Source: Actinomycetes bacterium (GTDB lineage: Bacteria > Actinomycetota > Acidimicrobiia > UBA5794). From it: DNA of 5,661 bases. This document shows, in pieces, positions 90 through 5,661 of the stretch (the first letter of the stretch is position 1; the number at the start of each line of letters is the position of its first letter). Both the position numbers and the translations under genes were made by a program. The DNA is taken from assembly GCA_030598305.1 (NCBI GenBank), contig JAUVQC010000098.1, forward strand, positions 1-5,661, in the 5' to 3' direction. A model generated the notes under the pieces. That model searched no databases. It saw nothing but the letters and a program-made list of their open reading frames with translations, and was not told the origin of the DNA.

Positions 90-143
90 CATGGTGAGGG
101 CGAACCATCACATAGTGAGGGCGAACCCTCACATGGTGAGGGC
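90..143 (-). repeat. 21-bp tandem repeat (about 2.6 copies) covering the stop codon of the carbamoyltransferase gene
   Basis: Read on the minus strand, two full 21-bp units (143 to 123 and 122 to 102) differ at only two positions, and a third partial copy of 12 bp (101 to 90) follows. Each unit starts GCCCTCAC(C/T)ATG, encoding Ala-Leu-Thr-Met; the two full units then have TGA and end GGTTC. The first unit is the real end of the carbamoyltransferase reading frame, and the next repeats the same codons and stop in frame behind it. Adjacent units form a hairpin (115-121 with 126-132, 7 bp, TTCG loop on the minus strand) that includes the stop codon. It looks like slippage duplication of a gene end. 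Confidence 0.8.
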
Positions 144-1103
144 CATTACCGCCTTCTGCACGTGGAGCCTGTTCTCGGCCTGGTCGAATACGCGGCTCCA
201 TCGACCATCGATGACTGCATCTGCAACCTCGATATTTCGATCGGCAGGGAGTGGATGCATGTAGATGGCGTCTTCATCAGCCATCTCCATCCGGCGTGGA
301 TCGACGATCCAGTCGGTGTAGTTGTCAGAGATCTTCGATGACTCCTCGAGGTTCGATGTGGTGAGCATGGAGCCCCAAGCCTTGGCGTAAACGACATCAG
401 CGCCCGCCATACCTTCTTCGAAGTCCTCGACGATCTCGAAGGAGCCGTGGAACTTCTTTGCGTTGTCCTCGGCCTGAGCCACGATCTCTGGCATCAGCTT
501 GAACTCCGGCGGACGAGTGAGGCGGACGTTCGCTCCGTAGCGGGTCATCAGAAGGATGACGCTCTGGGGAACGCTGATCGGCTTCTGATAGCTCGACGCA
601 TATGCATAGCTCATGTTGATCGTGAGCTTGCGCGGATCGCCCTTCTGCTCGATGATCGTCAGCAGGTCGGCGAGCGCCTGATGAGGGTGGTACCAGTCAC
701 ACTGCATGTTGAGAACAGGCGTGCGGCTGGCTTCTGCGACTGCGCGGATGTAGTCATTTCCGATTCCCCAGTCAACCTGGCGAATCGCGATCCCATCGTT
801 GTACCGACCAAGGATCTCACCGATCTCCTTCCATGTATCACCGTGCCCGATCTGGGTACTCGTGGAATCGAGGAACATGGCGTGACCACCGAGCTGGGCC
901 ATGCCTGCCTCGAAGCTTGCCCTTGTCCTGGTGCTGGAGAAGAAGAACAGCATCGCAAGAACCTTGTCGCGCAACAGCGGGTGGGGTTCGCCAAGGGCTC
1001 GCCTGCGCTTGAGGTCGAGAGCGATATCGATCACTGTGTCGAGTTCGTCCTTCGTCCACTCCTGGGTTGTGATCATGTCACGACCGTGTAGATGAGTTTG
1101 CAT
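129..1103 (-). CDS. Knotted-type carbamoyltransferase, YgeW / N-acetylornithine carbamoyltransferase group
   Basis: A 324-residue member of the aspartate/ornithine carbamoyltransferase superfamily, predicted cytosolic, moving a carbamoyl group between carbamoyl phosphate and an amine. Seen: the carbamoyl-phosphate motif SSTRTR at 56-61, an HPHQ at 139-142 in place of the usual HP(T/C)Q, a proline-containing YAYASSYQKPISVP loop at 166-179 where knotted members carry their knot, AKAWGSM at 240-246, and MHPLPADRN at 282-290. From memory, the middle resembles E. coli YgeW, while the end (AENRLHVQKA, 309-318) resembles Xanthomonas N-acetylornithine carbamoyltransferase; it is shorter than YgeW (about 396 residues). 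The frame is open to an ATG at 1181, but that start overlaps the regulator gene. I chose the ATG at 1101-1103 because AAAGGAG sits 6 nt upstream and the family N-terminus begins there. It lies 31 nt behind the GntR gene, so probably cotranscribed. The exact substrate is unknown. Confidence 0.88.
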   Translation of the reverse strand: MQTHLHGRDMITTQEWTKDELDTVIDIALDLKRRRALGEPHPLLRDKVLAMLFFFSSTRTRASFEAGMAQLGGHAMFLDSTSTQIGHGDTWKEIGEILGRYNDGIAIRQVDWGIGNDYIRAVAEASRTPVLNMQCDWYHPHQALADLLTIIEQKGDPRKLTINMSYAYASSYQKPISVPQSVILLMTRYGANVRLTRPPEFKLMPEIVAQAEDNAKKFHGSFEIVEDFEEGMAGADVVYAKAWGSMLTTSNLEESSKISDNYTDWIVDPRRMEMADEDAIYMHPLPADRNIEVADAVIDGRWSRVFDQAENRLHVQKAVMALTM

Positions 1104-1109
1104 CAATTG

Positions 1110-1116
1110 CTCCTTT
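1110..1116 (-). promoter_or_regulatory. Ribosome binding site that fixes the carbamoyltransferase start
   Basis: Read on the minus strand the sequence is AAAGGAG, followed by 6 nt and the ATG at 1103-1101. This strong site supports the internal start over the longer open frame from 1181, whose first 26 codons are out-of-frame GntR coding sequence and the short spacer behind it. Confidence 0.8.
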
Positions 1117-1134
1117 GTAGTTGCTGGATCTTGT

Positions 1135-1866
1135 TCATGCTCCGGCCCGTTTTCGGATGAGACGGAAGCGGAGGAGATCATCGCGGAAGTACGAGGTTGC
1201 CCTCACGATGGGCTCGTTGTTCTGGTCGAAGCCGATCTCGTCGAACGAGATGGCCAACGTGCCCGTCGCAACCCCGAGCTTTGCCGCCGCATCCTTGTCG
1301 AGGGAGACAGGGATGATCTCTGAGAGGTAGTAACTGAGAGTGCGATTGCAGTGCTGCTCGAGAAACTCGTAGACCGGCGTTGCCTCGTCGTCGGAGTACT
1401 CGGTATCAGTGAGGATGCCGCTCGGTATCCGGTTGATCGTGAGAATCACCGGTTCCTCGTCCTCGAGAAACAGCTTCTCGATGACCAGGATCGAGTCATC
1501 GTTCGAAAGCCCCAACGCCTCGACTGTTGCTGTGTCTGCGGCCATCTCGCTCTCGGCCAGCACGCGAATGGAAGGCACATACCCGTGGTCCTCGAGCACC
1601 TGTTCGTAGGACCAGATCTCCTCGAGCCTTGACTTGATCCGGAGTCCCTGTTCGTTCACGAAGGTACCAGCGCCCTGCCTGCGATAGATCGTGCCCTCGT
1701 GTTCGAGGCGACTCAAGGCATCGCGGACGGTGGTACGACTGACGCCAAGGTCACTGGCCAATTCGGTCTCCGGCGGGATGCGCCCGTCCTCGAATCCGTC
1801 CTCGGCGATTTGCCTCTTGATGTGGTCCTTCACCTGTTCAGTGAGCGATGGATTGCGGGTGATCAT
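1135..1866 (-). CDS. GntR-family (HutC/UTRA subfamily) transcriptional regulator
   Basis: A 243-residue DNA-binding regulator. Residues about 8-72 form the GntR winged helix-turn-helix: IPPETELASDLGVSR (30-44) followed by TTVRDALSRLEHEGTI and RRQGAGTFV (62-70), the family signature almost in full. Residues about 95-236 match the UTRA ligand-binding domain of HutC-type members, ending in the typical SYFRDDLLRFRL stretch (225-236). HutC-type proteins usually repress catabolic or transport operons and are released by a pathway metabolite. Its place between two divergent enzyme sets, with a palindrome at 1898-1917, implies control of both operons and of itself (inference). The ATG at 1866 is the only plausible start, since a TAG lies three codons upstream in frame. 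No good Shine-Dalgarno site is visible; the ATG instead follows a small hairpin. Confidence 0.93.
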   Translation of the reverse strand: MITRNPSLTEQVKDHIKRQIAEDGFEDGRIPPETELASDLGVSRTTVRDALSRLEHEGTIYRRQGAGTFVNEQGLRIKSRLEEIWSYEQVLEDHGYVPSIRVLAESEMAADTATVEALGLSNDDSILVIEKLFLEDEEPVILTINRIPSGILTDTEYSDDEATPVYEFLEQHCNRTLSYYLSEIIPVSLDKDAAAKLGVATGTLAISFDEIGFDQNNEPIVRATSYFRDDLLRFRLIRKRAGA

Positions 1867-1879
1867 CGGGTGCTACCCG
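1867..1879 (-). other. Small hairpin abutting the GntR start codon
   Basis: CGGGT and ACCCG form a perfect 5-bp stem around a 3-nt loop, directly next to the ATG at 1866. It occupies the place where a ribosome binding site would be expected, and none is otherwise seen. It could lower translation of the regulator, or be chance given the GC content. Confidence 0.35.
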
Positions 1880-1897
1880 GCTGGCGTACGGTCATCA

Positions 1898-1917
1898 GGT
1901 TGTAGTATAGTAGGACC
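1898..1917. promoter_or_regulatory. Candidate operator palindrome for the GntR regulator
   Basis: The 20 bp GGTTGTAGTATAGTAGGACC is symmetric at 7 of 10 base pairs, giving GGTnnTAnTA and its complement about a centre between 1907 and 1908. The outer GGT/ACC arms and AT-rich centre recall palindromes bound by HutC-type GntR proteins. It covers the -10 elements of both divergent promoters, so a bound repressor would block both. Assignment to this regulator is inference from position and symmetry. Confidence 0.5.
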
Positions 1918-1933
1918 AATATCCGCAGGCCAA
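1904..1933 (-). promoter_or_regulatory. Predicted promoter for the GntR-carbamoyltransferase operon
   Basis: On the minus strand TTGGCC (1933-1928) and TATACT (1909-1904) are separated by 18 nt, a fair match to a sigma-70-type -35 and -10. Transcription would start near 1897, leaving about 30 nt of leader before the GntR ATG. The -10 is good and the -35 weak. Confidence 0.4.
1906..1911 (+). promoter_or_regulatory. Predicted -10 element for the rightward carbamoyltransferase-kinase-PLP operon
   Basis: TATAGT differs from the consensus TATAAT at one position. No convincing -35 is seen 16-18 nt upstream (the region reads TGGCGTAC), which suits a promoter that needs an activator or is weak. Transcription would start near 1918, about 32 nt before the ATG at 1950. 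It overlaps the minus-strand -10 almost entirely. Confidence 0.4.
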
Positions 1934-1937
1934 ACCC

Positions 1938-1943
1938 AGGAGG
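1938..1943 (+). promoter_or_regulatory. Ribosome binding site of the aspartate-carbamoyltransferase-like gene
   Basis: AGGAGG, a full-strength Shine-Dalgarno sequence, ends 6 nt before the ATG at 1950 and settles that start. Confidence 0.8.
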
Positions 1944-1949
1944 ACATCC

Positions 1950-2900
1950 ATGCGCAGCTTTGCCGGACGCGACATTCTCTCTCTCAAGGAATTCGAACGG
2001 AACGAGTTCTTTCACCTGTTCGAGATCGCAGACCGCCTCGAACCGATCGCACGGGAGCGCCGGAACACGGACCTTCTCTCCCACAAGACACTTGTCACCG
2101 CCTTCTATCAGCCATCCACCCGTACACGTCTGGCCCACGAGGCCGCGATGCACCGCCTCGGTGGAGCCGTCACAGGGTTCTCCGATGCAAAGATGACGCG
2201 TGCAGGGGACTTCTACCAGGAGTCGATCAAGGACACCGTCCACATGTTGGAGTACTACGGCGACGTGCTTGTCATGCGCCACTTCGAACAGGGTGCACCG
2301 CACGAGGCAGCCAAGTGGGCCTCGATTCCCGTCATCAACGCTGGTGATGGTTGGGGTGAGCACCCCACTCAGGTCCTCACCGACCTCTACACCGTGCTCA
2401 AGGAGAAGGGAACCCTCGACGGGCTGACGTTTGTTGCCATCGGCGACCACCGCATGCGCACCATGCACTCCCTGGGATATGCACTCAGCCAGTTCGATGC
2501 CGAGATGGTGATCCTGTCTCCAGAAGAGATGGCTCCTCTTCCCGAGTTCCTTGCAGAGCTCGACGAAAAGGGAACGAACTACCGAACGGTCGATCACATC
2601 GACGAGGTGATCGGTGAAGCTGATGTCATCTACATGGAGCCTGTCATCCAGCCGGATTACACGATTCCCGTCCATGAGAGGCCAGACGACTACGGAATCA
2701 CACCGGACAACTACAAGATCACCCAGGAGGTCATGACCAGGGCCAAGGGCGATTCCATCATCCTCCACTCACTCCCCCGCATGGACGAGCTCCTACCTGA
2801 GGTCGACGACCTCAAGCACGCTCGCTACTGGCAGGAGGCCTACAACGGTGTTGTGATGCGCATGGCGCTCATCTCCTCGGTCCTCGGAGCCTGGGAGTAA
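1950..2900 (+). CDS. Aspartate carbamoyltransferase-like protein, probably with a different substrate
   Basis: A 316-residue superfamily member whose nearest familiar relative is the catalytic chain PyrB. Visible: QPSTRTR (54-60) and HPTQ (138-141) for carbamoyl phosphate, VMRH (108-111), RTMHS (170-174, matching the RTVHS of E. coli PyrB) and HSLPR (273-277, with Ser in place of Pro in HPLPR). By unaided alignment with E. coli PyrB recalled from memory, Arg229 and Gln231, which hold the aspartate side chain, correspond to Pro231 and Ile233 (YMEPVIQ). The 80s loop has Arg84 and Phe88 where PyrB has Ser80 and Lys84. The loop before HSLPR is about six residues longer. Carbamoyl phosphate handling looks intact and amine recognition altered. 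It is the first gene of the plus-strand operon and its stop overlaps the carbamate kinase start (TAATG). A true biosynthetic PyrB is the alternative, but no pyr gene is nearby. Confidence 0.85.
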   Translation: MRSFAGRDILSLKEFERNEFFHLFEIADRLEPIARERRNTDLLSHKTLVTAFYQPSTRTRLAHEAAMHRLGGAVTGFSDAKMTRAGDFYQESIKDTVHMLEYYGDVLVMRHFEQGAPHEAAKWASIPVINAGDGWGEHPTQVLTDLYTVLKEKGTLDGLTFVAIGDHRMRTMHSLGYALSQFDAEMVILSPEEMAPLPEFLAELDEKGTNYRTVDHIDEVIGEADVIYMEPVIQPDYTIPVHERPDDYGITPDNYKITQEVMTRAKGDSIILHSLPRMDELLPEVDDLKHARYWQEAYNGVVMRMALISSVLGAWE

Positions 2901-3841
2901 TGCCAAGACTCGTTATCGCCATTGGCGGCAACTCACTGATCCCGGACGGTGACCACCAGACCGTCCAGGATCAGTACGCCGCGGCGGCTGAGACCGATGA
3001 CCATATTGCTGGTCTCGTCGAGCAGGGCTGGGACGTCGCGATTTCGCACGGCAACGGACCGCAGGTTGGATTCATCCTTCGGCGGTCCGAGCTTGCAAGC
3101 AATGAGTTACACGAGGTCCCACTCGACTACTGCGGAGCCGACACACAAGGCGCGATCGGGTACATGCTCCAGCAGAACCTGGTCAACGACTTCCGCCAAC
3201 GCGGAATCGACAAGAGCGTTGTGACTGTGGTCACCCAGGTCGAGGTGGATGCCAACGACCCGGCTTTCGGGAAACCGGCCAAACCGATCGGTTCATTCAT
3301 GGACGAGGAAGAGGCAGTGCGCCGGCGTGACGAGGAGGGCTGGGATGTTCTCGAGGATGCCGGACGTGGTTGGCGCCGCGTCGTTGCATCGCCACAGCCG
3401 ATGCGCATCGTGGAACTCGACGTGATCCGAAACCTGCTCGATGCCGGTGTTGTGACCATTGCGGTCGGCGGTGGCGGTATCCCTGTCATCGAGAACGAGG
3501 ATGGTGATCTCGAAGGGATCGCTGCGGTGATAGACAAGGATCTGGCCTCTGCGCTCCTGGCCAACCAGGTCAACGCCGATTTGTTGCTGATCTCGACCGC
3601 CGTGGAGCAGGTCGCTCTCAACTTTGGAACACCCGAACAACGGTGGGTTGACCAGTTCACACTCGCCGAGGTCAAGCAGCATCTCGAGGAGGGTGGTCAT
3701 TTTGCCGAGGGCTCGATGGCACCGAAGATGCGTGCGGTCGTCCAGTTCCTCGAGGCCGGCGGCAAGGAAGCACTCATCACCGACCCGGCGAATCTGGAGC
3801 GCGCAATGGCTGGCGAGACTGGTACCAGGATCGTTCAATGA
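2900..3841 (+). CDS. arcC: Carbamate kinase
   Basis: A 313-residue cytosolic kinase of the amino acid kinase fold, normal length for the family. It catalyses carbamoyl phosphate + ADP to carbamate + ATP, the energy-yielding last step of catabolic carbamoyl pathways. Motifs: AIGGNSLI (7-14), HGNGPQVG (50-57), the GRGWRRVVASPQP segment (155-167, usually YGWRRVVPSPxP), AVGGGGIPVI (188-197), VIDKDLASALLA (210-221), NFGTPEQ (241-247) and GSMAPKM (271-277) with its conserved Lys276. Nothing essential seems missing. The start overlaps the preceding stop by one base (TAATG), with GGAG about 10 nt upstream inside the previous gene. The end overlaps the next start (ATGA). This coupling to a carbamoyltransferase argues that the transferase runs toward carbamoyl phosphate, although the reverse cannot be excluded. 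Confidence 0.96.
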   Translation: MPRLVIAIGGNSLIPDGDHQTVQDQYAAAAETDDHIAGLVEQGWDVAISHGNGPQVGFILRRSELASNELHEVPLDYCGADTQGAIGYMLQQNLVNDFRQRGIDKSVVTVVTQVEVDANDPAFGKPAKPIGSFMDEEEAVRRRDEEGWDVLEDAGRGWRRVVASPQPMRIVELDVIRNLLDAGVVTIAVGGGGIPVIENEDGDLEGIAAVIDKDLASALLANQVNADLLLISTAVEQVALNFGTPEQRWVDQFTLAEVKQHLEEGGHFAEGSMAPKMRAVVQFLEAGGKEALITDPANLERAMAGETGTRIVQ

Positions 3842-5094
3842 CGTTCGTCACAGGACTCACGTGTGTGATCTGTGACAAGACGTACCCGGCGGACTATGCC
3901 GGGTACGTCTGCCCCGATCACGGCAACGAGGGAATCCTCGATGTGCGCTATGACTACGAACGCATCGGCACGGCGTTCACCCGCGAAACGCTCGCAGCCG
4001 ACCGAGACCGCACGATGTGGCGGTATAAGCCATTGATGCCGGTGGCACCCGATGCTGTAGTCCCCCCGCTCACGGTCGGTGGAACACCCATGTACAACGC
4101 AACGCCGCTCGCCGAACAACTCGGTGTGGCCAAGGTGTGGGTCAAGGACGAGGGCCGTCAGCCAACGGCATCACTCAAGGATCGAGCGTCAGCAATGGCG
4201 GTCGTGAAGGCACAGGAGCGTGGCGCCGAGGTCGTCACGACCGCGTCAACAGGCAATGCTGCCGCAGCGCTCTCCGGGATCGCTGCGAGCGTCGGACAGC
4301 GCAATGTCATCTTCGTACCGGCATCTGCCCCCGAGGCGAAGGTGGCGCAACTTCTCGCGTACGGTTCGACCGTTGCGCTCGTCAACGGTTCGTACGGTGA
4401 CGCATTCGATCTCTGCATGGAGGCGTCAGCCGAGTACGGTTGGTACAACCGCAACACCGGATACAACCCCTTCATGACGGAGGGCAAGAAGACCGCCGGC
4501 CTCGAAATCCTCGAGGACCTCGGTTGGCAACCACCAGACGCGATCTTTGTGAGCGTCGGTGACGGCTCGATCATCGGCGGGATCCACAAGGCGCTGAAGG
4601 ATGCCTCTGCGCTCGGTTGGATCGACCACATGCCGCGGATCTTCGGGATTCAGTCCGCGGGCAGTGACTACCTCGTTCAAGCGTTCGAAACCGGCGACGA
4701 CGTTCTGACGAAGCAGCCAATAGTCGCTGACACGGTCGCAGACTCGATCAGCGCCGATCTACCGCGCGACCGTATCAAAGCGATGGCAGCCGTGGTGGAG
4801 ACGGACGGTGCATACCTCCGTGTTTCAGATGATGAGATCCTCGAATCCATTCCGACCCTTGCACGTGGCTCGGGTGTCTTCGCAGAGCCCGCAGGTGCAG
4901 CCCCACTTGCCGGGCTCATAGCCGCCCTCGATCAAGGCCTCATCGCTTCGGGTGACCGGGTCGTGTTACTCGCAACCGGAAGTGGCCTCAAGGACGTATC
5001 GTCCGCCATGAAGGCGGTTGCGGCCGTGGGCACGGAACCCATGCGTGTGGACCCAAACCTCGATGCGCTCAAACAAGCTTTGTCCAACAACTGA
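3838..5094 (+). CDS. Threonine synthase-like PLP-dependent enzyme with N-terminal zinc-ribbon motif
   Basis: A 418-residue fold-type II PLP enzyme of the threonine synthase group. The N-terminus has C9-x2-C12-x12-C25-x2-H28, a zinc-ribbon-like motif common in longer threonine synthases. Lys114 in ASLKDRAS is the expected Schiff-base lysine; ASTGNAAAALSG (136-147) is the substrate loop, GDGSIIGG (241-248) the cofactor phosphate loop (usually GxGGxxxG-like), and ATGSGLKD (379-386) the typical C-terminal motif. Threonine synthase turns O-phosphohomoserine into threonine, but no homoserine pathway gene is near and the gene sits between carbamate kinase and another PLP enzyme. It may instead process the amino acid released by the carbamoyltransferase (inference). 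The ATGA overlap with the kinase gene, with AGGA 7 nt upstream of the start, implies translational coupling. A perfect 13-bp inverted repeat lies in the first codons. Confidence 0.88.
   Translation: MTFVTGLTCVICDKTYPADYAGYVCPDHGNEGILDVRYDYERIGTAFTRETLAADRDRTMWRYKPLMPVAPDAVVPPLTVGGTPMYNATPLAEQLGVAKVWVKDEGRQPTASLKDRASAMAVVKAQERGAEVVTTASTGNAAAALSGIAASVGQRNVIFVPASAPEAKVAQLLAYGSTVALVNGSYGDAFDLCMEASAEYGWYNRNTGYNPFMTEGKKTAGLEILEDLGWQPPDAIFVSVGDGSIIGGIHKALKDASALGWIDHMPRIFGIQSAGSDYLVQAFETGDDVLTKQPIVADTVADSISADLPRDRIKAMAAVVETDGAYLRVSDDEILESIPTLARGSGVFAEPAGAAPLAGLIAALDQGLIASGDRVVLLATGSGLKDVSSAMKAVAAVGTEPMRVDPNLDALKQALSNN
3878..3910 (+). other. Perfect 13-bp inverted repeat inside the start of the threonine synthase-like gene
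   Basis: Bases 3878-3890 (AGACGTACCCGGC) and 3898-3910 are exact reverse complements around a 7-nt loop (GGACTAT). The mRNA hairpin begins about 40 nt after the ATG and encodes the stretch between zinc-ligand pairs (Thr15 to Cys25). There is no T run, so it is not a classical terminator. It could slow ribosomes, mark a processing site that separates kinase from PLP-enzyme expression, bind a protein, or be coincidence constrained by the protein sequence. Confidence 0.6.
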
Positions 5095-5099
5095 AAGGA
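5093..5099 (+). promoter_or_regulatory. Ribosome binding site of the last PLP gene
   Basis: GAAAGGA overlaps the TGA stop of the preceding gene and ends 10 nt before the ATG at 5110. The AAAGG at 5103-5107 is too close to the ATG to serve. This supports the start chosen for the partial gene. Confidence 0.6.
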
Positions 5100-5109
5100 C
5101 CCAAAGGTC

Positions 5110-5661
5110 ATGATCGATCTCACCGTCAACGAAGCCGTACTCGAGTCTGCCGTCCAGCAGGCGAGAGAACGCGACTTCAAGATCCCAACGTTCAAGCAGA
5201 TGCGCGACCCAAGCCTGATCCCAGAGGATGTGAAGCAGCGTCTTGGCAGCGTCGGTTTGTGGGACCTCGATCCGCTCAACCTGTACCGCATCACATGGCA
5301 CAACGACCCGAAGCCATCGGGTGGTGGATTCGGTGGCGTGAACTACTTCGAGGTTCCGTCCGAGATCAGTGGTGTGGATGCTCGCATCGTCATGCTTGAA
5401 GGGAAGTGGTTCCCAACGGGTGCCCACAAGGTCGGTGCCGCCTTTGGATGCCTCGCTCCCCGACTTGTGAGTGGTCAGTTCGATCCATCGACCCAGAAGG
5501 CTGTATGGCCCTCCACAGGCAACTACTGCCGTGGCGGCGCGTACGACTCGAACCTCCTTGGTTGCGAGTCGATTGCGATCCTGCCGGAAGGTATGAGCGC
5601 TGAGCGCTTCCATTGGCTCGAGAGCGTGGCTGGTGAAATCATCAAGACTCCGGGCACGGAA
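5110..5661 (+). CDS. Fold-type II PLP-dependent enzyme, N-terminal part (cysteine synthase / tryptophan synthase beta-like), function unknown
   Basis: The first 184 codons of a gene that runs off the right edge; no stop occurs in frame. Lys107 in FPTGAHKVGAAFG (101-113) fits the Schiff-base lysine of fold-type II enzymes; the GAHK order recalls tryptophan synthase beta. STGNYCRGGAYDSNLLG (135-151) is the substrate/phosphate loop seen as STGN or TSGN in cysteine synthases and relatives. A long N-terminal part of about 100 residues precedes the lysine, with a Gly-rich GGGFGGVNYFE segment (71-81). I recall a conserved family of such proteins annotated only as PLP-dependent or cysteine-synthase-like. 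It is not close to E. coli diaminopropionate ammonia-lyase, whose lysine motif differs. The 15-nt gap to the preceding gene places it in the same operon, where two unlike PLP enzymes probably act in sequence on one amino acid (inference). Confidence 0.8.
   Translation, partial: MIDLTVNEAVLESAVQQARERDFKIPTFKQMRDPSLIPEDVKQRLGSVGLWDLDPLNLYRITWHNDPKPSGGGFGGVNYFEVPSEISGVDARIVMLEGKWFPTGAHKVGAAFGCLAPRLVSGQFDPSTQKAVWPSTGNYCRGGAYDSNLLGCESIAILPEGMSAERFHWLESVAGEIIKTPGTE

What the first reader, a model, noticed from the sequence alone, without database searches (positions are those of the whole stretch)
129..5661. Divergent regulon pairing two carbamoyltransferases, carbamate kinase and two PLP enzymes: candidate undescribed ureido-compound pathway
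Seen: GntR regulator, knotted-type carbamoyltransferase, PyrB-like carbamoyltransferase, carbamate kinase, threonine-synthase-like and a second fold-type II PLP enzyme, all packed and divergent. Known: carbamate kinase with a transferase typically makes ATP from carbamoyl phosphate (arginine deiminase, agmatine deiminase, and probably the ygeW-yqeA region). Inference: a ureido amino acid is phosphorolysed and the amine product is broken down by PLP eliminations. Chemically plausible substrates include 3-ureido-2-aminopropionate (giving 2,3-diaminopropionate), O-ureidoserine or O-ureidohomoserine; none can be chosen from sequence. No deiminase, hydantoinase or amidohydrolase is in the window, so the ureido compound may be imported or made by genes to the right.
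Basis: partly seen in the sequence, partly recalled or inferred. Interest (0 to 1): 0.72.

Follow-up and report, generated by a model that had tools for sequence, protein, structure and literature searches.

The report
Variant reductive urate-degradation gene cluster
These packed bacterial genes most likely form the last part of the recently described oxygen-free uric acid breakdown route, in a variant where a second carbamoyl-releasing enzyme and two vitamin-B6 enzymes may stand in for the known final enzymes, which could let the cell make extra ATP from purines.

Summary
The genes are there. The pathway is not undescribed: it is most likely the reductive (yanthine) uric acid pathway published in 2025 (PMC12507026), with different enzymes. 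In relatives the block is linked to SsnA-type, YgfK-type or F420-reductase, HyuA and xanthine dehydrogenase genes; 18 of 140 loci (17 distinct) hold an SsnA-type gene and the knotted transferase. The knotted transferase groups with E. coli YgeW. The PyrB-like enzyme is not an ordinary aspartate transcarbamylase: Arg229, Lys84 and Gln231 are replaced in 80-81 of 81, and 22 of 31 genomes have a separate PyrB. Among 233 genomes of one Chloroflexota class with strong SsnA, YgeY is missing in 20 of 63 with the PyrB-like gene, 15 of 170 without (p=4.6e-5); YgeX is found in 6 of 233. Best reading: both ureido groups of 2,3-diureidopropionate leave as carbamoyl phosphate for ATP, and the ThrC-like and 486-residue PLP enzymes replace YgeX. 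No activity was measured; YgeY or YgeX sometimes coexist with these genes.

The parts
129..1103 (-). Knotted-type carbamoyltransferase, YgeW-like, 324 aa (start at 1103; the longest ORF reaches 1181)
   Evidence: 76 such proteins plus E. coli YgeW form one clade, support 0.997; 36% identical to YgeW
1135..1866 (-). GntR/UTRA regulator, upstream of and on the same strand as the knotted transferase
   Evidence: PF00392, PF07702; a hit to this GntR in 43 of 80 loci
1867..1949 (.). Divergent intergenic region; no inverted or direct repeat found
1950..2900 (+). PyrB-like second carbamoyltransferase, 316 aa; carbamoyl-phosphate site kept, aspartate site changed
2900..3841 (+). Carbamate kinase, 313 aa, 49% identical to E. 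coli YqeA
3838..5094 (+). Threonine-synthase-like fold-type II PLP enzyme, 418 aa
5110..5661 (+). Second fold-type II PLP enzyme (PLP486), first 184 residues; the full-length L005 relative is modelled with the O-acetylserine sulfhydrylase/CBS fold

Best explanation
The window is the downstream part of a reductive (anaerobic-type) uric acid degradation gene cluster, in a relative of Actinomycetota/Acidimicrobiia MAGs. Upstream enzymes, not in the window, reduce and open the purine to 2,3-diureidopropionate. The YgeW-like knotted transferase and the PyrB-like transferase each phosphorolyse one ureido group, giving two carbamoyl phosphates and 2,3-diaminopropionate. Carbamate kinase turns each carbamoyl phosphate into ATP, CO2 and NH3. 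The threonine-synthase-like enzyme and/or PLP486 eliminate ammonia from 2,3-diaminopropionate to give pyruvate, the job of YgeX in E. coli. The GntR protein regulates both divergent units. Shown by sequence: the gene set, its linkage to SsnA-, YgfK-, HyuA- and F420-type genes in relatives, the YgeW clade, and the altered acceptor site of the PyrB-like enzyme. Inferred: every catalytic assignment, the regulation, which transferase cleaves which ureido group, and which PLP enzyme does the elimination.
For: Linkage: L028, L037 and L042 carry PyrB-like, YgeW-like, ThrC-like, PLP486, SsnA-like and YgfK-like genes on one strand; 18 of 140 loci (L001-L140, partly fetched around SsnA or YgeY; L053 and L101 are the same stretch) hold an SsnA-type gene and the knotted transferase. 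Whole genomes (31, chosen from the 80 loci for longer flanks): HyuA over cut-off in 27; SsnA over cut-off in 11 and a 207-246-bit SsnA-like gene in 14 others; YgfK over cut-off in 8; F420 luciferase-family protein in 19. Transferases. YgeY: in L136 it takes the place that the PyrB-like gene has in L044 and L059 (GntR-X-knotted-kinase-ThrC-like); 20 of 63 against 15 of 170 SsnA-positive genomes lack it; over cut-off in 0 of 15 genomes of the window's group. YgeX: in 6 of 233 SsnA-positive genomes; in L002, whose PyrB-like protein is 98% identical to the window's, a YgeX-like gene follows the kinase directly.
Against: No activity data. The window's own genome is not held; the nearest locus, L001, is 82.8% identical over 5667 alignment columns and shows no SsnA-type gene in its 6.6 kb. 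YgeY coexists with the PyrB-like gene in 43 of 63 SsnA-positive genomes, and over all 298 genomes the depletion of YgeY is not significant (49 of 70 against 185 of 228, p=0.066). YgeX-like genes coexist with ThrC-like and PLP486 in G002, G007, G008 and G260. Carbon-nitrogen hydrolase genes lie beside SsnA-like or ThrC-like genes in L035, L041/L100, L091 and L095 and could remove a ureido group by hydrolysis. SsnA-like and the L091 YgfK-like protein are below the curated cut-offs. The Fisher tests ignore kinship. Two PLP enzymes for one elimination are unexplained.
Confidence: 0.55

Rival explanations
1. Same pathway, but only the YgeW-like enzyme works on diureidopropionate; the PyrB-like enzyme acts on another purine-derived ureido compound or in the biosynthetic direction, and YgeY or another hydrolase removes the second ureido group.
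For: YgeY is kept with the PyrB-like gene in 43 of 63 SsnA-positive genomes and in 8 of the 80 loci. Two carbon-nitrogen hydrolase genes (PF00795; one nearest to N-carbamoylputrescine amidase, 254 bits, cut-off 410) occur in L035, L041, L091, L095 and L100, where L041 and L100 overlap, and in L035 and L041 one lies directly before ThrC-like on the same strand.
Against: 0 of 15 genomes of the window's group have YgeY over cut-off; among SsnA-positive genomes YgeY loss is commoner where the PyrB-like gene is present; the PyrB-like gene takes the YgeY position; the hydrolase pair was seen in only those 5 of the loci compared.
Confidence: 0.3
2. The cluster is an arginine- or agmatine-deiminase-like route, or ordinary aspartate/ornithine carbamoylation plus threonine synthesis, placed together by chance.
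For: Pfam and NCBIfam names of the single genes.
Against: Conserved in two phyla with purine genes; separate PyrB in 22 of 31 genomes; separate ThrC above 280 bits in 16 of 31; aspartate-binding residues replaced in 80-81 of 81. Arginine deiminase itself was not searched for.
Confidence: 0.04
3. The PLP pair does not cleave diaminopropionate but serves another step, such as racemising it or using it for biosynthesis, and diaminopropionate ammonia-lyases elsewhere do the cleavage.
For: YgeX-like genes above 280 bits in 6 of 31 genomes, three of which (G002, G007, G008) also have the pair; SbnA, a diaminopropionate biosynthesis family, is a weak relative of PLP486 (38.6 bits).
Against: 25 of 31 genomes and 227 of 233 SsnA-positive genomes show no strong YgeX, so another enzyme must do the step if the pathway runs to the end.
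Confidence: 0.2

Closest known systems
Reductive uric acid degradation cluster of E. coli (xdhD-ygfM-ygfK-ssnA-hyuA-ygeW-yqeA-ygeY-ygeX), PMC12507026
   Same: YgeW-type transferase, carbamate kinase and PF00291 enzymes; in relatives SsnA-type, HyuA, YgfK or an F420 enzyme, xanthine dehydrogenase
   Different: Adds a PyrB-like transferase, no YgeY over cut-off in 15 of 15 genomes of the window's group, and a ThrC-like plus PLP486 pair where E. coli has YgeX
Chloroflexota F420 variant mentioned in PMC12507026
   Same: SsnA with a luciferase-family F420 enzyme and F420 genes on the same contigs
   Different: The passages read map YgeW and YgeX at Pfam level (PF00185, PF00291), which does not tell the PyrB-like enzyme from YgeW or the PLP pair from YgeX
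Aspartate transcarbamylase (PyrB)
   Same: 36% identity to E. coli PyrB; Ser52-Thr55, Arg105, His134, Gln137 and Arg167 kept in 81 of 81
   Different: Arg229 to Pro and Lys84 to Tyr in 81 of 81, Gln231 to Thr in 80 of 81 (column beside a gap), Pro266 to Ser in 81 of 81
Threonine synthase (ThrC)
   Same: Over the TIGR00260 cut-off; lysine motif PT(A/G)SxKDR
   Different: Arg160 of T. thermophilus ThrC is Met, Thr or Val in 26 of 26; its phosphate-binding role is recalled

Membership tests
Reductive uric acid pathway gene cluster | Linked SsnA-type aminohydrolase | tested here: met
   In relatives, not in the window: SsnA over cut-off in 11 of 31 and a below-cut-off SsnA-like gene in 14 more genomes; in the same locus as the knotted transferase in 18 of 140 loci, 17 distinct, and as the PyrB-like gene in 12, 11 distinct
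Reductive uric acid pathway gene cluster | Dearomatising reductase (YgfK, UacX or F420 enzyme) | tested here: met
   In relatives: YgfK over cut-off 8 of 31, F420 luciferase-family 19 of 31; UacX was not searched
Reductive uric acid pathway gene cluster | HyuA hydantoinase | tested here: met
   In relatives: 27 of 31 genomes over the TIGR02033 cut-off
Reductive uric acid pathway gene cluster | YgeY hydrolase | tested here: not met
   Over cut-off in 7 of 31 genomes, 0 of 15 of the window's group; in the class survey it is common, 223 of 298
Reductive uric acid pathway gene cluster | YgeX diaminopropionate ammonia-lyase | tested here: not met
   TIGR03528: 0 of 31 over cut-off, 6 of 31 above 280 bits; 7 of 298 in the class survey. 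One of the six, in L091, passes the NF006058 and TIGR01747 diaminopropionate ammonia-lyase models, so the feature is met in a minority of relatives
Reductive uric acid pathway gene cluster | Conversion of uric acid to pyruvate by these enzymes | not testable with these tools
   Needs enzyme assays
YgeW (knotted transcarbamylase) | Groups with YgeW rather than OTC or PyrB | tested here: met
   Clade of 76 plus YgeW, support 0.997, midpoint root
YgeW (knotted transcarbamylase) | Over the curated TIGR03316 cut-off | tested here: not met
   171.8 bits, cut-off 500; so YgeW-like, not a curated YgeW
Aspartate transcarbamylase | Aspartate-binding residues Lys84, Arg229, Gln231 (roles recalled) | tested here: not met
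   Replaced in 81, 81 and 81 (80 Thr, 1 Ala) of 81; kept in 14 of 14 separate PyrB proteins. It does pass TIGR00670
Threonine synthase | Arg160-type residue (role recalled) | tested here: not met
   Met/Thr/Val in 26 of 26; it does pass TIGR00260
O-acetylserine sulfhydrylase (for PLP486) | Over curated cysK cut-off | tested here: not met

The most novel reading that the evidence does not exclude
In Acidimicrobiia and a part of the Anaerolineae, uric acid breakdown recovers both ureido groups as carbamoyl phosphate through two transcarbamylases of different descent, doubling the substrate-level ATP yield of this segment compared with E. coli. The single YgeX enzyme, which acts on both enantiomers, is replaced by a pair of PLP enzymes, perhaps one for D- and one for L-diaminopropionate.
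Probability: 0.4. Interest if true: 0.65.

Novelty: new variant of a known kind. Interest (0 to 1): 0.5.

Why it matters
It names candidate enzymes for steps that the published pathway leaves open in two large environmental phyla: a second ureido phosphorolysis, and diaminopropionate cleavage without YgeX. It makes the open question of the order and site of ureido cleavage (stated in PMC12990295) testable, because two separate transferases may each be specific for one ureido group. If right, purine breakdown yields two carbamoyl phosphates per urate, which matters for the energy budget of such bacteria. Automatic names such as aspartate carbamoyltransferase, threonine synthase and cysteine synthase would then be wrong for these families.

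Tried and rejected
The window's genome is not held, so presence of the upstream genes in the same species could not be tested. No repeat was found in the divergent region, so no operator is proposed. The xanthinase-type purine route was considered because a FolD gene lies in 7 Chloroflexota loci, but in some of them protein kinase or gyrase genes accompany it, so it may be a mere neighbour, and the linkage is to SsnA and HyuA. Oxalurate phosphorolysis was set aside because the title and abstract start of PMC11326118 (search listings) give that activity to allFGH. Fold search of PLP486 gave the general O-acetylserine sulfhydrylase/CBS fold; no row shown by either program is titled diaminopropionate ammonia-lyase, which excludes nothing. 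Papers for the roles of ThrC Arg160 and PyrB Arg229 were searched and none was read, so these roles are recalled. Prior print was searched; in their listings (titles and abstract starts) I saw none that tells of a PyrB-like enzyme or a ThrC-like/PLP486 pair in this pathway. Only PMC12507026 (parts 1-2 of 7 plus passages) and PMC12990295 (part 1 of 2) were read; the second primary study (Liu et al.) was not seen. The homologue search with PLP486 only showed that the family is large and named cysteine synthase.

Changed on re-checking: the confidence of the best explanation was lowered from 0.75 to 0.55, because the whole statement cannot be likelier than its least certain step (about 0.6) and one search showed the hydrolase pair beside ThrC-like in two more loci; the hydrolases are no longer named D-carbamoylase, since bears out only PF00795.
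Full report
What is in the window. Six genes, whole except the last, which is cut by the edge. On the minus strand a GntR/UTRA regulator (1135-1866) is followed by an OTC-family knotted-type transferase. The listed ORF starts at 1181 and would overlap GntR; the ATG at 1103, preceded by AAAGGAG, fits the start seen in relatives. On the plus strand a PyrB-like transferase, carbamate kinase, threonine-synthase-like PLP enzyme and a second PLP enzyme (PLP486) overlap or lie within 15 bases of each other.

Conservation. A scan of GTDB genomes with the PyrB-like protein found 411 relatives; 80 were kept. Reference proteins compared by tblastn with these 80 loci found the kinase in 73, the knotted transferase in 71, ThrC-like in 54, PLP486 in 47 and this GntR in 43. 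The gene after the kinase was ThrC-like in 40, a BMP-type binding protein in 11, xanthine dehydrogenase in 3, YgeX-like in 1, PLP486 in 1 and none of the references within 1.5 kb in 11; 7 loci had no kinase hit and 6 had it at the end.

The neighbours are purine genes. NCBIfam and Pfam scans of one representative per family named adenine deaminase, 8-oxoguanine deaminase and a YgeY-family hydrolase, each over its cut-off, and a PnrA/BMP-type ABC transporter. A xanthine dehydrogenase-type protein (Se_dep_XDH 789 bits, cut-off 830) matched in 19 of 80 loci. That pointed to the reductive uric acid pathway (PMC12507026, parts 1-2 of 7 and passages read): uric acid to yanthine, then by YgfK and SsnA to ureidomethyl-hydantoin, by HyuA to 2,3-diureidopropionate, by YgeW to albizziin plus carbamoyl phosphate, by YgeY to 2,3-diaminopropionate, by YgeX to pyruvate. 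A commentary (PMC12990295, part 1 of 2 read) says that two studies disagree on which ureido group YgeW cleaves.

Test in whole genomes. I took 31 of the 80 loci, chosen for longer flanks, and searched their genomes. HyuA (TIGR02033) is over cut-off in 27 of 31. SsnA (TIGR03314) is over cut-off in 11 of 31; 14 others have a weaker 207-246-bit match from about position 55 on, in at least 9 of these on the contig of the PyrB-like locus (contig lengths). I call it SsnA-like. Other aminohydrolases of these genomes score in the same range, so the name rests on linkage and on SsnA being the only NCBIfam family of the L091 copy at E of 1e-35 (264.6 bits, cut-off 444). YgfK is over cut-off in 8 of 31. 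A luciferase-family protein (PF00296, nearest to F420-dependent reductases) matches in 19 of 31 at E of 1e-40 or better. YgeY is over cut-off in 7 of 31, all with Chloroflexota-type titles. YgeX (TIGR03528) is over cut-off in none and above 280 bits in 6; the L091 copy passes two other diaminopropionate ammonia-lyase models. The 15 genomes of the window's group are G001-G011, G013, G014, G017 and G020; 13 of their loci bear Actinomycetota-type titles, L010 is titled only bacterium and L017 Acidobacteria.

Direct linkage. In L028, L037 and L042 the PyrB-like, knotted, ThrC-like, PLP486, SsnA-like and YgfK-like genes run on one strand. In loci without a PyrB-like gene, L121, L124 and L125 read YgeY-knotted-kinase-ThrC-like-PLP486-SsnA-NpdG-CofE, with CofD in L121 and L124, and L123 has the same set plus a HyuA-type gene and the F420 enzyme. 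In all, 18 of 140 loci (L001-L140) hold an SsnA-type gene and the knotted transferase together; L053 and L101 are the same stretch, so 17 are distinct. Many of L081-L140 were fetched around SsnA or YgeY, so this is linkage evidence, not a frequency. CofC, CofD, CofE and NpdG pass their NCBIfam cut-offs.

The two transferases. In a tree of 81 PyrB-like, 76 knotted, 14 ordinary PyrB and 6 OTC proteins plus E. coli PyrB, ArgI and YgeW, the knotted proteins and YgeW form one clade (support 0.997) and the PyrB-like proteins one clade (support 0.875) inside the ATCase branch; 7 of 83 knotted proteins were dropped by the length filter (FastTree, midpoint root). At E. coli PyrB numbering, Ser52-Thr55, Arg105, His134, Gln137 and Arg167 are kept in 81 of 81 PyrB-like proteins, while Arg229 is Pro in 81, Lys84 is Tyr in 81, Pro266 is Ser in 81 and Gln231 is Thr in 80 and Ala in 1; the 14 separate PyrB proteins keep Lys84, Arg229 and Gln231 in 14 of 14. 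The Gln231 column lies beside a gap and is less sure. A separate PyrB above 300 bits exists in 22 of 31 genomes, one more shows a contig-end fragment, 8 show none. So the protein keeps the carbamoyl-phosphate site and changes the acceptor site. The roles of these residues are recalled, not from a call.

Replacement tests. In 298 genomes of the class of G018 (not named by the tool; by the titles of members such as L075 and L079, probably Anaerolineae), the PyrB-like gene is in 70 at E of 1e-95, SsnA in 233 at E of 1e-85 (224 over cut-off), YgeY in 234 at E of 1e-75 (223 over cut-off), YgeX in 7 at E of 1e-70. At these thresholds only E. coli of 14 control genomes rings for SsnA and for YgeY, and E. 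coli and Deinobacterium chartae for YgeX. SsnA accompanies the PyrB-like gene in 63 of 70 against 170 of 228 without it (p=0.005). Within the 233 SsnA-positive genomes YgeY is missing in 20 of 63 with and 15 of 170 without the PyrB-like gene (odds ratio 0.21, p=4.6e-5); over all 298 the YgeY difference is not significant (p=0.066). YgeX is present in 6 of 233. The tests ignore kinship and MAG incompleteness. L002, with a PyrB-like protein 98% identical to the window's, has a YgeX-like gene right after the kinase (78% to the L091 copy over 289 residues, up to the contig end); L047 and L048 have a YgeX-like gene and neither PLP enzyme within their loci. Against strict replacement: G002, G007 and G008 have both the pair (L005, L025, L029) and a YgeX-like gene, G260 likewise, and YgeY stays in 43 of 63. 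A pair of carbon-nitrogen hydrolase genes in L035, L041/L100, L091 and L095 is another possible way to remove a ureido group.

Verdict. Membership in the reductive uric acid pathway is strongly supported by linkage in relatives (my estimate 0.9). That the PyrB-like enzyme phosphorolyses a ureido group of this pathway I put at about 0.6, and that the PLP pair replaces YgeX at about 0.6. The published network maps YgeW and YgeX at Pfam level (PF00185, PF00291), so by that label alone it would not tell these families from the E. coli ones. This is a new variant of a known pathway.

Noticed in passing
L091 17156-18088 and 18199-19092; L095; L100; L035; L041: Two carbon-nitrogen hydrolase genes (PF00795) lie beside SsnA-like or ThrC-like genes and could be a hydrolytic alternative for ureido removal.
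   Followed up: partly
L007, L015, L016, L017, L067, L068: MAG titles (Chloroflexi, Acidobacteria, Deltaproteobacteria, Lentisphaerae) sit oddly with PyrB-like proteins 71-93% identical to the window's; misbinning, mislabelling or transfer.
   Followed up: no
G025:C6 (L118); L140 (G119): Two SsnA-type genes on one contig, about 10 kb apart; L118 and L140 show one at 64-67% and one at 43-44% identity to the L109 SsnA.
   Followed up: no
L129 (G033) and L134 (G281): Diverged versions of the knotted transferase and YgeY (43% and 37%; 30% and 39%); L129 joins them with YgfK-like, ThrC-like and PLP486 genes.
   Followed up: no
L043, L050, L051, L052, L054, L056, L062: A FolD gene lies upstream of the purine genes in these loci (family 15); it may be a mere neighbour or serve one-carbon units.
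   Followed up: no
G024:C2:512739-514063; G026:C98:15113-16072: SsnA of G024 falls into two matches with separate open frames, and the transferase beside the PyrB-like gene of G026 shows an in-frame TAG; assembly error or decay.
   Followed up: no
L110 12194-15493: The xanthine dehydrogenase-type protein carries a C-terminal stretch with weak dual-specificity phosphatase-type Pfam matches (PF22785, residues 973-1061), perhaps a fused neighbouring frame.
   Followed up: no
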